Assembly: GCF_000815105.2 (NCBI RefSeq)
Contig: NZ_CP010310.2
Coordinates: forward strand, 5,456,001 to 5,520,000
Direction: 5' to 3'
DNA length: 64,000 bases
Source of the DNA: Pandoraea pulmonicola
Lineage (GTDB): Bacteria > Pseudomonadota > Gammaproteobacteria > Burkholderiales > Burkholderiaceae
Position numbers and translations under genes: made by a program. Below the pieces are notes generated by a model that had not been told where the DNA came from, searched no databases, and worked only from the letters and a program-made list of their open reading frames with translations. Shown here piece by piece: positions 2,412-5,718 of the stretch (the first letter of the stretch is position 1; each line of letters starts with the position of its first letter).

Positions 2412-3107
2412 TCAGCGGGGAAAGTTATCACGGACGGGTGACATGGGCGTCGCCTGTCCCTGATCATCGCCATTCGGCGGTGTCGCATCCTGGCCGCCGA
2501 CGTTCGCGTCGTCCTTCGATAGCGAGGCCGGTGCACCCTCGAAAAGCGCACTGTCCGGCACGCCATGCGCGACGTCCGGCGTGCTGGGCACGATGCCCGC
2601 GACTTCCAACTGCATCAGCACCATGTTGACGAGCGCGTTGACGCTCGGCCGCCCGGTTTCAATCACAAAGGTCGCGCACTCGCGATAAAGCGCGTCTCGC
2701 TCCTGAAACAGCTGTTCGAGACGCGCGCGCGGATCCGCCGTCTGCAGCAACGGGCGATTCTTGTCGCGTCGGGTGCGCAGCCAGAGGTCATGCGGATTGG
2801 CGCGAAGATAGACGACCGTGCCGCGCGACTTGATGCGTTCGCGATTCTCCGCCCGCAATACAGCGCCCCCGCCGGTCGCGAGAACGATGCCACTGCGTTG
2901 GGTGAGCTCGTCGATGGTTTGGGCTTCGCGCTGGCGGAAACCGTCTTCGCCCTCGTGCTCGAAGATGACCGGAATGCGCACGCCCGTGCGCGCCTCGATC
3001 TCGTGGTCGGAATCATAGAACTGCCGCCCGAGACGTCGTGCCACTGCGCGTCCAACCGTGGTCTTGCCCGCCCCCATCAGTCCGACAAGTATTACGTTTT
3101 CCAGCAT
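2412..3107 (-). CDS. aroK: Shikimate kinase with low-complexity C-terminal tail
   Basis: AroK phosphorylates shikimate with ATP. The P-loop GLMGAGKTT (residues 9-17), the DSDHEIE shikimate-binding segment and the GGGAVLR region are clear. The catalytic domain ends near residue 175, typical for the family. A further ~55 residues rich in Pro, Asp, Gly and Gln follow, ending SPVRDNFPR; they resemble no domain I know. The start is fixed by the standard N-terminus ENVILVGLMGAGKTT. The first 95 bases of the gene lie inside the 3' end of the preceding pilOQ gene in another frame, so translation is probably coupled. Confidence 0.96.
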   Translation of the reverse strand: MLENVILVGLMGAGKTTVGRAVARRLGRQFYDSDHEIEARTGVRIPVIFEHEGEDGFRQREAQTIDELTQRSGIVLATGGGAVLRAENRERIKSRGTVVYLRANPHDLWLRTRRDKNRPLLQTADPRARLEQLFQERDALYRECATFVIETGRPSVNALVNMVLMQLEVAGIVPSTPDVAHGVPDSALFEGAPASLSKDDANVGGQDATPPNGDDQGQATPMSPVRDNFPR

Positions 3108-5718
3108 AAATCGCTGATATTTGGGTTCCAGTCCCTGATGATACCGGGATATCCCATTGGCGTGCGGAACGCGTCGCCCCGGGCATCCCCTCGGTGAGCC
3201 TGGGATGGTTGACGGGCAGGTCGTTTTTTGACGCCGGCGGCGCCACCCGCACGGCTGGCGCGACCGTGGCGGGCAAGGCGGGCGGTGGCCCGGATTCCGG
3301 CACCGCAGGCAGGTCGGATGACGTTTCCACTGCGATCGAAGCGCCCTCGGACGAGCCGCCCCCCTCTGGCACCACGCTCGGCGTCAGGAAGACGAGCAGC
3401 TCCGTGCGGCGGTTTTCCTCGGTGCGATTGCGGAACAGAGCACCGAGCACCGGTACCTCCCCCAGCCACGGCACTCGGGCGCGGCTGTCGCGCTGCTCCT
3501 CCTGATAAATGCCGCCAATGGCAACCGTTCCGCCATTTTCGACCTGCACCTGGGTCTTGACCTGCCGAGTGTCGACGGCAAATCCGCCGGCGACCTCCTG
3601 CCCGACGCTGTCCTTGCGCACGTCCACGTCGAGAATCACCCGACCGTCGGGCGTGATCAGCGGTGTGACCTCCAGCCGCAGCGTCGCTTTTCTGAAATGC
3701 ACCGACGGCAGGCTGCGTCGGCCCTCCCTCGTCAGGTATGGCAGTTCCGTGCCCTGCTCGATAACTGCCTGAATCTTGTCCGCCGTCACCACACGAGGCC
3801 GCGAAATCACCCGTCCGCGCCCGCTCGTCTCCAGCGCGGCGAGCTCGATCTGCAGAAACCGCGTCGCCGAACGTCCGAACAGCGTGATGGCCAGACTCGG
3901 CGGCACCACGCCTGCAAGCGCCGCCGCAGGCAGGCCGACATCGAGCGAGCTGCCCCGCGGTTTGTCGTCGTCACCGCGCTTACCCTCGGGCTTGTCGGTG
4001 CCGCGTGCGTCACCTGAGCGACCACGGCCACCACGATCCGAGGTCTCACCGCCGCGGCCGCCATCCGGCGCGCCGCTGTACCCCGCCAGCCGCACGCCCA
4101 GCGAGTCGCTGAACCGGTCGTCGACCTCGACGATGCGGGCTTCGATCAGCACCTGCCTCACCGGCACATCGATGCGCGCGATGAACGAGGCCAACGCCTC
4201 GAGCTTTTCGGGCAGGTCTGTCACGAAAAGCTGATTGGTACGCGGGTCCGCGATCAGACTTCCCCGCGCAGAGAGAAGCCTCCGCCCCTTCGCGTCCTTC
4301 TCTCCCACGATGATCTCCCGCAAGGCCAGCGCACGCGGATAGTTGAGCGTGAAGCGGCGGCTGGTGAGCGGCAGCATCGCCTCTCGTTTGGCAGCGGCCT
4401 CCAGTTGCGTCTGCTCATCGGCCAGCAATTGCGCACGAGGGGCGATCCAGTCCACTCCGCCGATGGACCGCACGCCCAGCCCAGCGCTACGGATCATGAC
4501 GTCGAATGCCGTCGCGGCCGACACACCCCGCACGTCCATGTCGAGACTGCCCTCCACGGGCTCACCGATCACCACACTGCGCCCCGTGAGCTGTGCGAAC
4601 GTCCGAAGCACGTCTGCGGTCTGTACGCCGTGCAAGGTCACATCGACGGTATCCGCGCCGCCGGGTTTCGCGCGACGCCCATGGTTCGGCGGGTCTTCAC
4701 GCCAGGTCGCCTCGAGTCCGGCAACACCACGTCGAAGCACGACATGGCGCGAGCCGGCTCGCATCGATCCTGCCGGCTTGGTCTCGTCGGTCGGCTGGCG
4801 CTGGCCGGACGCCGCCATCGTCACGGCATCCTGCGCCGGACGACGTGTCAGCGGCGTGCGAAATACGTCGGTCATGTCCGCCGGCAAGTCCCATGCGGGC
4901 AAAAGGGCCGGCATCGCGGGCAGCGTCGGTGTCGCTGTCGGACTGGCGAGGTTCGCGGGTTTGCGCCAAAGATAGGCCGCGATGGTCACCGTAAGCACCG
5001 CATGCGCATCCGCCGTCCCGGCGGTTCCCTGTGCGGGGCCCTGGAGCGAAAATCGCTCGATTGCCAGATGGCGCGGCATCCGGTCGATGTCGGCCAGCCA
5101 GCCGAGCAAGTCCGCCACCGTGCCCCTGACGCGCATTTCCGCCCGCTCGACCTCGAGGTCATCGGTGCGACCGACACCTTCGGACGCCGCGGACGGCCCG
5201 GGTCGCGTGGTTTCCAGTATCAAACCGGCACGCGCCACCAATCGCTCCAGATCGGCACGCCAGACGTTCTGAGGCTCGCCACGCGGCGCCTCTGTCTGGA
5301 GCCCATCACTGGCTTCCGGCGGATGGGCCGCTCCCGCGGCCGCAACCGCGGCGTCCAATGCACCGTCGACGATCGGCAGCAAGCGCCGCCATGCGATGTC
5401 ATCGGTCTGAGCGCTGCGAAGCGACGCCGTCAGTGCCGGCAATCGCTGCGCGGCTTCGTCGGTCCGTGCCAGGATCGCCTGCTCGATACCGAGGTCCTTC
5501 TGCAACGCGGCTCGCACCGGCAAGCCGACGAGCCACCAGATCGACCACGTCAGCGTCAGTCCGGCCAGCCAGGCCATGGCCGCCGAAATCCATCGCATTG
5601 GCGCAGACCACTCCGTCGGCGAGGTGGATGTCCAGGTGGCCCACCGTGTGCGCCAACGGTTCGCCATTTCATGAACGACGTCGCGGACGTCGTCCGGCGG
5701 ATGGGGATCACCGTACAT
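3013..5718 (-). CDS. pilQ: PilO-PilQ fusion: inner-membrane pilus alignment protein joined to secretin
   Basis: One uninterrupted 901-residue frame carries two proteins that are normally separate. Residues 1-255 look like PilO: a single membrane segment (about 44-66) and a periplasmic fold containing DLLGWLADIDRMPRHLAIERF. Residues 255-350 are a Pro-rich linker in which MTDVFRTPL faintly recalls the PilP 'DPF' segment. Residues 357-430 match the STN/N0 domain, 452-520 an N1 domain ending FIARIDVP, and 525-783 the secretin domain (VLIEARIVEV, then VAIGGIYQEE, PWLGEVPVLGALFR, TELLVFLTP). Residues 547-590 are a Gly/Asp/Arg-rich insertion and 784-901 a disordered tail overlapping aroK. No internal start with a signal peptide precedes the secretin part. 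The gene overlaps pilN by 11 bases. Domain calls are from memory of family motifs; the fusion itself is read directly. Confidence 0.82.
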   Translation of the reverse strand: MYGDPHPPDDVRDVVHEMANRWRTRWATWTSTSPTEWSAPMRWISAAMAWLAGLTLTWSIWWLVGLPVRAALQKDLGIEQAILARTDEAAQRLPALTASLRSAQTDDIAWRRLLPIVDGALDAAVAAAGAAHPPEASDGLQTEAPRGEPQNVWRADLERLVARAGLILETTRPGPSAASEGVGRTDDLEVERAEMRVRGTVADLLGWLADIDRMPRHLAIERFSLQGPAQGTAGTADAHAVLTVTIAAYLWRKPANLASPTATPTLPAMPALLPAWDLPADMTDVFRTPLTRRPAQDAVTMAASGQRQPTDETKPAGSMRAGSRHVVLRRGVAGLEATWREDPPNHGRRAKPGGADTVDVTLHGVQTADVLRTFAQLTGRSVVIGEPVEGSLDMDVRGVSAATAFDVMIRSAGLGVRSIGGVDWIAPRAQLLADEQTQLEAAAKREAMLPLTSRRFTLNYPRALALREIIVGEKDAKGRRLLSARGSLIADPRTNQLFVTDLPEKLEALASFIARIDVPVRQVLIEARIVEVDDRFSDSLGVRLAGYSGAPDGGRGGETSDRGGRGRSGDARGTDKPEGKRGDDDKPRGSSLDVGLPAAALAGVVPPSLAITLFGRSATRFLQIELAALETSGRGRVISRPRVVTADKIQAVIEQGTELPYLTREGRRSLPSVHFRKATLRLEVTPLITPDGRVILDVDVRKDSVGQEVAGGFAVDTRQVKTQVQVENGGTVAIGGIYQEEQRDSRARVPWLGEVPVLGALFRNRTEENRRTELLVFLTPSVVPEGGGSSEGASIAVETSSDLPAVPESGPPPALPATVAPAVRVAPPASKNDLPVNHPRLTEGMPGATRSARQWDIPVSSGTGTQISAIYAGKRNTCRTDGGGQDHGWTRSGTTSRAAVL

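What the first reader, a model, noticed from the sequence alone, without database searches (positions are those of the whole stretch)
3013..5718. PilO and PilQ fused in one reading frame, with no separate PilP
A single 901-codon frame joins a PilO-like inner-membrane segment (helix near residues 44-66) to a complete STN-N1-secretin block (357-783). In known type IVa systems PilO is anchored in the inner membrane, PilP is a lipoprotein and PilQ is exported with a cleaved signal peptide to the outer membrane. Here the secretin has no signal peptide of its own and would be tethered to the inner membrane, physically bridging both membranes. The gene that should encode PilP is missing and only a weak DVFRTPL trace remains in the linker. 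The pilM and pilN genes next to it are also divergent, so this may be a reduced competence or pilus machine.
Basis: partly seen in the sequence, partly recalled or inferred. Interest (0 to 1): 0.72.

Follow-up and report, generated by a model that had tools for sequence, protein, structure and literature searches.

The report
Pilus channel fused to its anchor
In most examined Pandoraea genomes, three genes that normally make separate parts of a pilus machine (an inner-membrane anchor, a connector and the outer-membrane channel) are one conserved gene, which would tie the channel directly to the inner membrane; no motor for pulling pili back was found in those genomes.

Summary
The 901-codon frame at 3013-5718 (minus strand) is real and not a sequencing error. 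The same layout is an uninterrupted frame in 27 of the 31 genus (Pandoraea) genomes that match it; one more copy is interrupted, and three species have pilQ as a separate gene. The protein is a membrane-anchored PilO (by fold match; its Pfam profile does not hit) followed by a PilQ secretin core (by profile). It has one conserved membrane segment and no second signal peptide. PilP is not simply missing: the middle keeps PilP's proline-rich DPF-like segment and what looks like the first three strands of its HR domain, the strands that published structures place on the secretin N0 domain. PilP's lipobox, its second sheet and PilQ's signal peptide are gone. These pieces are under purifying selection. 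Relatives show PilO-PilP fusions with a separate PilQ (11 loci) and one PilN-PilP fusion. PilT was found (E<=1e-50) in 12 of 12 genomes scored as having separate genes and in 1 of 40 with a fusion, but this rests on few independent events. Verdict: a new variant of a known kind, probably an inner-membrane-tethered secretin of a non-retracting, competence-type pilus. Cleavage and function are untested.

The parts
3013..5718 (-). pilO-pilP'-pilQ fusion gene, 901 codons plus stop
5515..5589 (-). membrane anchor of the PilO part (residues 44-68), the only hydrophobic segment before N1 that all 28 proteins share
   Evidence: helix 39-113 in the model
4963..5514 (-). PilO coiled coil and ferredoxin-like fold (residues 69-252; fold 150-252)
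4849..4929 (-). PilP mature N-terminal segment, proline-rich plus D-V-F (residues 264-290; canonical PilP LPEP...DPF)
   Evidence: read by eye; residues 276-305 dN/dS 0.14
4696..4776 (-). half HR domain of PilP: first three beta-strands (residues 315-341)
   Evidence: three strands in the model; profile match, weaker in 72; dN/dS 0.23 for residues 314-341; six strands in the PilO-PilP relative
4432..4656 (-). secretin N0 (STN) domain (residues 355-429)
4096..4428 (-). N1 / Secretin_N region (residues 431-541)
   Evidence: PF03958 (479-522); dN/dS 0.03
3370..3837 (-). secretin barrel domain (residues 628-783)
   Evidence: PF00263; dN/dS 0.04 for residues 606-784
5708..6379 (-). pilN, overlaps the fusion gene by 11 nt
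   Evidence: PF05137 E 1.4e-6 (on 5708-6373); ATG at 6379 placed by eye
6370..7443 (-). pilM, divergent
   Evidence: PF11104 E 1.7e-10 over its cut-off; TIGR01175 45.6 bits, below its cut-off of 133
2412..3107 (-). aroK, overlaps the 3' end of the fusion frame
   Evidence: name recalled from the sequence

Best explanation
The gene encodes PilO, half of PilP and the PilQ secretin core as one chain. SHOWN from sequence and models: a short N-terminus, one membrane segment, a PilO-type coiled coil and ferredoxin-like domain, a DPF-like segment, a three-stranded block that matches the first sheet of PilP's HR domain, then N0, N1 and the secretin barrel, conserved and under purifying selection. INFERRED: the PilO helix acts as an uncleaved signal anchor, so the chain is inserted by Sec with its C-terminus in the periplasm. 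The half HR domain stays docked on N0 of its own or a neighbouring subunit, and the barrel inserts into the outer membrane. The channel is thus covalently tied to the inner membrane with PilO:PilP:PilQ fixed at 1:1:1. INFERRED origin: in-frame deletions across overlapping gene ends removed PilP's lipobox, then PilP's second sheet together with PilQ's signal peptide. INFERRED function: a pilus or pseudopilus for DNA uptake that extends with a PilB-like ATPase but has no PilT for retraction.
For: Frame conserved; no second shared hydrophobic segment; PilO and N0 folds; PilP half: hhalign score 26.9 against a shuffle maximum of 18.5, 0 of 200, same register with 42 canonical PilPs but weaker; dN/dS 0.14 and 0.23 in the PilP pieces against 0.37-0.62 in the stretches around them; six HR strands in the PilO-PilP relative, whose best PilP and GspC-HR fold matches are 2y4x (E 0.009), 2y4y (E 0.016, TM 0.65) and 3oss_C (E 0.053, TM 0.85); gene ends overlap by 4 nt in the 10 PilO-PilP loci that could be delimited; the published N0 interface is mainly the first three HR strands (PMC3169554, passages) or the PilP beta1-beta2 hairpin (PMC3441751, passages); PilT 0 of 28 in fused genomes at E<=1e-50; ComEC-type PF03772 in 31 of 32; PilB-like, PilC-like, prepilin peptidase, pilin and GspH-type genes in the window's genome.
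Against: No protein data: the disordered 256-311 stretch could be cut by a protease. The model is of middling quality (mean pLDDT 66.4, pTM 0.31), and no call matched the half HR to PilP by fold. Against canonical PilPs of other Burkholderiales the profile match is weak (P 0.034; 3 of 300 shuffles as good). Pfam's PilP profile hits neither the fused genomes nor the two PilO-PilP fusions tried, so the name PilP rests on motif, position and fold. Competence is not demonstrated; the two searches aimed at Pandoraea pili each listed one unrelated paper.
Confidence: 0.7

Rival explanations
1. The fusion is made as one chain and exported by the PilO anchor, but a periplasmic protease cuts the disordered 256-311 stretch, so mature PilO and a PilP'-PilQ secretin act apart as in other systems.
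For: Most of residues 256-311 has pLDDT under 50 and the stretch varies in length between species.
Against: Residues 276-305 inside that stretch have dN/dS 0.14, so it is not a free spacer. No call looked for a conserved cleavage site.
Confidence: 0.22
2. The system is decaying: fusion, PilT loss, prepilin peptidase trimming and pilM/pilN divergence are steps towards loss of the pilus, and the fusion does nothing.
For: No PilT, prepilin peptidase without the A24_N domain in the two fused genomes examined, altered PilM motif, one genome with the gene interrupted.
Against: dN/dS 0.03-0.08 in N0, N1 and secretin and 0.14-0.26 in PilO and PilP pieces; 27 uninterrupted copies.
Confidence: 0.06
3. 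The secretin is made separately from an internal start, giving a separate PilQ.
For: In-frame ATG/GTG codons are expected in any long frame; they were not catalogued.
Against: No hydrophobic segment between residue 68 and N1 is shared by the 28 proteins; single proteins have sporadic weak ones, so such a product would as a rule have no export signal.
Confidence: 0.02

Closest known systems
Type IVa pilus alignment complex PilM-PilN-PilO-PilP-PilQ (P. aeruginosa, N. meningitidis)
   Same: Gene order pilM-N-(O-P-Q)-aroK-aroB (as in the sister species), PilO fold, PilQ core, PilP-N0 contact elements
   Different: O, P and Q are one chain; no lipoprotein PilP, no PilQ signal peptide, half HR domain; no PilT found in the fused genomes
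PilO-PilP fusion of Pseudomonas putida (UniProt Q88CU9, cited in PMC3169554)
   Same: PilO joined to PilP
   Different: Described there as PilO-PilP only, without PilQ; the P. putida sequence itself was not examined here
GspB/OutB of the type II secretion system (PMC9239104)
   Same: A membrane-anchored HR domain ties the secretin N0 ring to the inner membrane
   Different: OutB is a separate protein that binds the secretin; here the tie is covalent
HofM-N-O-P-Q DNA-uptake genes of E. coli (recalled)
   Same: Reduced T4P-like set; HofQ profiles hit the secretin part, below their cut-offs
   Different: HofO, HofP and HofQ are separate genes (recalled)

Membership tests
Type IV pilus secretin PilQ | PilQ subfamily profile above its curated cut-off | tested here: met
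   TIGR02515 376.2 bits against 284.35
Type IV pilus secretin PilQ | Own cleavable signal peptide | tested here: not met
   No shared hydrophobic segment between residue 68 and N1 in 28 proteins
PilO | Pfam PilO profile PF04350 | tested here: not met
   No PF04350 match at E up to 1 for the window protein; only subthreshold T2SSM_b
PilO | Single membrane helix, coiled coil and PilO ferredoxin-like fold | tested here: met
PilP | Lipobox lipoprotein | tested here: not met
   No second shared hydrophobic segment or lipobox in the alignment; present in the sister species G023 and G030
PilP | HR domain of two three-stranded sheets | tested here: not met
   Only three strands, 315-341, before N0 (middling model); relative L070 has six
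PilP | DPF segment and first HR strands | tested here: met
   weaker; the Pfam PilP profile itself does not hit
Type IVa pilus system | PilB-like ATPase, PilC-like platform, prepilin peptidase and pilins in the genome | tested here: met
   PilB and PilC score below their equivalog cut-offs
Type IVa pilus system (retractile) | PilT retraction ATPase | tested here: not met
   0 of 28 fused genomes at E<=1e-50 with the G023 PilT
Natural competence machinery | ComEC channel | tested here: met
   PF03772 in 31 of 32 genus genomes
Natural competence machinery | DNA uptake phenotype | not testable with these tools
   needs an experiment

The most novel reading that the evidence does not exclude
Nature has built a covalent trans-envelope secretin: a 1:1:1 PilO:PilP:PilQ chain in which only the N0-binding half of PilP is kept. 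Fusions of this kind arose more than once, in lineages that lost PilT, because the free exchange between PilNO, PilP and PilQ is needed for retraction and not for extension or DNA uptake.
Probability: 0.3. Interest if true: 0.82.

Novelty: new variant of a known kind. Interest (0 to 1): 0.62.

Why it matters
The copy number of the inner-membrane parts per secretin, and which PilP-PilQ contacts matter, are open questions; PMC3169554 (passage) cites the PilO-PilP fusion when arguing about stoichiometry. A natural PilO-PilP'-PilQ chain would fix the ratio, shows which half of PilP was kept, and offers a covalent complex for structure work. The association with missing PilT makes a specific idea testable: the loose joints in the alignment complex serve retraction.

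Tried and rejected
Assembly frameshift: rejected, the frame is uninterrupted in 27 genomes. Internal start with signal peptide: disfavoured. A second full pilMNOPQ in this genome: not seen; of the six other secretin hits, five match this protein only at residues 608-787 and the sixth not at E<=0.001, but their neighbourhoods were not typed one by one. PilP elsewhere: none found by PF04351, a search that also missed the visible PilP of G030, so it is weak evidence. Polarity: the quick PilQ tree puts the separate-gene species next to the fused clade (95), with the PilO-PilP clade further out, so the two PilO-PilP joins look independent; the tool warns of long branches at that join, and an ancestral join with later fission is not excluded. 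PilT link: the 52 genomes hold only two or three independent changes. In the wider (27 of 120 at E<=1e-70) PilT also hit genera whose gene arrangement I did not examine (g5, g19, g21, g22). One search lists short T2SSE ATPases (about 350-430 codons) in several fused genomes; they fall below the PilT threshold and were not examined. Fold search did not list PilP for residues 315-341; the tool notes that such parts were barely tested. The stronger hhalign test used 13 PilPs from near lineages, 10 of them PilO-PilP fusions. With 42 of 72 canonical PilPs (those with a literal DPF; 30 rows dropped) the result was weaker: 3 of 300 shuffles as good, one of them an outlier at 130.8. In dN/dS, 25 of 319 eligible pairs were used, and L032 (interrupted) and L033 (most diverged, runs into AroK) were left out; the stretch overlapping aroK gave 5.57 from almost no synonymous change, which reflects aroK. 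Tree: L032, L040 (interrupted copy) and L042 (duplicate of L033) were dropped.

Full report
What is there. The minus-strand frame 3013-5718 encodes 901 residues without a stop. It lies between pilN (ending at 5708, overlapping by 11 nt) and aroK (2412-3107); pilM and a divergently transcribed PBP1a-type gene are upstream, aroB and dgt downstream (aroK, aroB, dgt and PBP1a names are recalled from the sequences). The genome is one contig of 5,867,621 bases. The genus is Pandoraea: two of the unnamed same-genus genomes with the fusion hold contigs whose lengths equal those of named Pandoraea records (94,636 and 128,458 bases).

Conservation. Of 32 genus genomes searched, 31 match; the one without is a 1.2 Mb genome. 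In 28 the match is the fused gene: 27 have one uninterrupted frame from the PilO start through the secretin, and in G019 the frame is interrupted, with an IS110-like (recalled label) coding frame next to the break. Three genomes (G023, G025, G030) carry the secretin as a separate gene. In G023 and G030 the order is pilM, pilN, pilO (220 and 218 aa), pilP (181 aa, signal peptide and cysteine read by eye), pilQ (477 aa with a signal peptide), with 4-nt overlaps at the O/P and P/Q junctions; the G025 contig starts inside pilP, so its O/P junction was not seen.

What became of PilP. The linker of the fused proteins holds conserved blocks: a proline-rich run ending in D-V-F (D-P-F in G028), and G-S-M-R-A-G-S-R-x-V-x-L-R-R. 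Profile comparison with 13 PilP sequences from near lineages aligned the second block to the L-V-G-T-L-R-x-x-x-R-x-x-A-L block of PilP (score 26.9, P 3.9e-4); 200 column shuffles gave a mean of 9.5 and a maximum of 18.5. With 42 canonical PilPs from other Burkholderiales the register was the same but the score weak (P 0.034; 3 of 300 shuffles as good). In a PilO-PilP fusion from a related genus (L070) the model (10 rows, mean pLDDT 68.7, pTM 0.40) has six strands at 225-281 and matches PilP 2y4x and 2y4y (E 0.009 and 0.016) and the GspC HR domain 3oss_C (E 0.053, TM 0.85 by target); Pfam's PilP profile does not hit it. The HR domain is two three-stranded sheets formed in order (PMC9239104, passages). 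So the fused protein appears to keep the first sheet and to lack the second.

Why that half. [quoted passage not shown] In N. meningitidis the PilP beta1-beta2 hairpin region binds PilQ N0 (PMC3441751, passages). The unstructured N-terminal part of PilP binds PilN-PilO (PMC5805733, passages). The parts kept are therefore those with known partners, and the part lost is the sheet outside the main N0 contact. This reading is inference; no call shows the contact in this protein.

Selection. Over the 25 closest of 319 eligible pairs, dN/dS is 0.24 for the anchor region, 0.26 for PilO, 0.14 and 0.23 for the two PilP blocks (residues 276-305 and 314-341), 0.37 to 0.62 for the stretches around and between them, 0.08 for N0, 0.03 for N1, 0.37 for the loop 542-605, 0.04 for the barrel and 0.62 for the C-tail. 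The aroK overlap gives 5.57 from near-zero synonymous change and says nothing about the secretin. The domains are kept as protein.

Relatives and origin. In the family search (200 genomes, 145 with a match at E<=1e-60), no genome outside the genus matched from before residue 240 in one open frame; G207 matched from residue 190 with two stops read through. Eleven loci from genera g8, g10, g11, g13, g20 and g25 have PilO and PilP in one frame and PilQ separate; in the ten that could be delimited, the pilOP stop overlaps the pilQ start by 4 nt. PilO there is supported by PF04350 in the two loci scanned (L069, L070) and by alignment. In G068 (g18) a short frame joins the PilN start and membrane helix to a PilP-like domain, with PilO gone (read by eye, no Pfam match). 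Loci of g3 and g24 have a separate PilP (9 of 10 loci, from 8 genomes, by phmmer; L062 too short). The PilQ tree (52 rows, quick method, SH-aLRT only) has the fused rows as one clade (100), the three separate-gene Pandoraea next to them (95), and the PilO-PilP rows as another clade (94); long-branch warnings apply. The simplest history is two separate PilO-PilP joins, with PilQ added in Pandoraea by in-frame loss across the overlapping gene ends. PilO-PilP fusion itself is known from P. putida (PMC3169554).

The rest of the machine. The window's genome has a PilB-like ATPase (402 aa; TIGR02538 462.9 bits against 675.65), a PilC/GspF-like protein (below its cut-offs), a prepilin peptidase with Peptidase_A24 but no A24_N domain, a pilin (PF00114), a GspH-type minor pilin and further minor-pilin-like genes read by eye. 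PF03772, the ComEC family (name recalled), is in 31 of 32 genus genomes. With the PilT of G023 (TIGR01420 457 bits) as query at E<=1e-50, hits were found in 0 of 28 genomes with the triple fusion, 1 of 11 with PilO-PilP (G063, 42% identity), 0 of 1 with PilN-PilP, and 12 of 12 scored as separate (3 Pandoraea, 9 of g3/g24; for G180 the pilP locus and for G025 the O/P junction were not seen). These counts reflect few independent events, and a wider sample has PilT hits in genera whose arrangement I did not examine.

What is in print. Paper searches (top of the listings only; passages read in four papers, and one section of PMC9239104) showed no report of a PilO-PilQ or PilO-PilP-PilQ fusion. The library lacks most subscription papers, so this is weak evidence of novelty.

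Verdict. It is a conserved PilO-PilP'-PilQ chain and most likely an inner-membrane-tethered secretin of a PilT-less, competence-type pilus. The architecture is well supported; the uncleaved state, the docking of the half HR domain and the function are inferred.

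Noticed in passing
L066-L073, L076-L078 (genera g8, g10, g11, g13, g20, g25): PilO and PilP are one frame with PilQ separate (11 loci); in the 10 delimited loci pilQ starts inside the pilOP stop (4-nt overlap).
   Followed up: yes
L079 about 3753-4307 (+), genome G068: PilN N-terminus and membrane helix joined directly to a PilP-like domain, PilO absent: a third kind of fusion in the same operon (read by eye).
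   Followed up: partly
52 genomes: PilT found in 12 of 12 genomes scored as having separate pilO/P/Q and 1 of 40 with any fusion.
   Followed up: partly
L052:8472-9269 (+) and L055:4563-5432 (-): Prepilin peptidase of two fused genomes (the window's and G028) lacks the A24_N domain that G023's enzyme has.
   Followed up: partly
window 6370-7443 (-): PilM has GIHFD where relatives have GIDIG; G028 has GVYFD, and the separate-gene species G023 and G030 keep GIDIG/GVDIG. This may be loss of the nucleotide-binding motif (motif recalled).
   Followed up: partly
L033 1405-4533 (+), genome G028: The fused frame runs on in frame through AroK (1043 aa from the chosen start), so PilO, PilP', PilQ and AroK form one open frame there; the AroK ATG remains.
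   Followed up: no
window about 3108-3182 (-): The ~75 bases before the aroK start are conserved (mean major-base frequency 0.92-0.98 in 27 genomes), far more than the pilQ tail before them; possibly an aroK promoter or leader.
   Followed up: partly
L040 / L032, genome G019: The fusion gene is interrupted in the secretin part, with an IS110-like (recalled label) frame beside the break.
   Followed up: no
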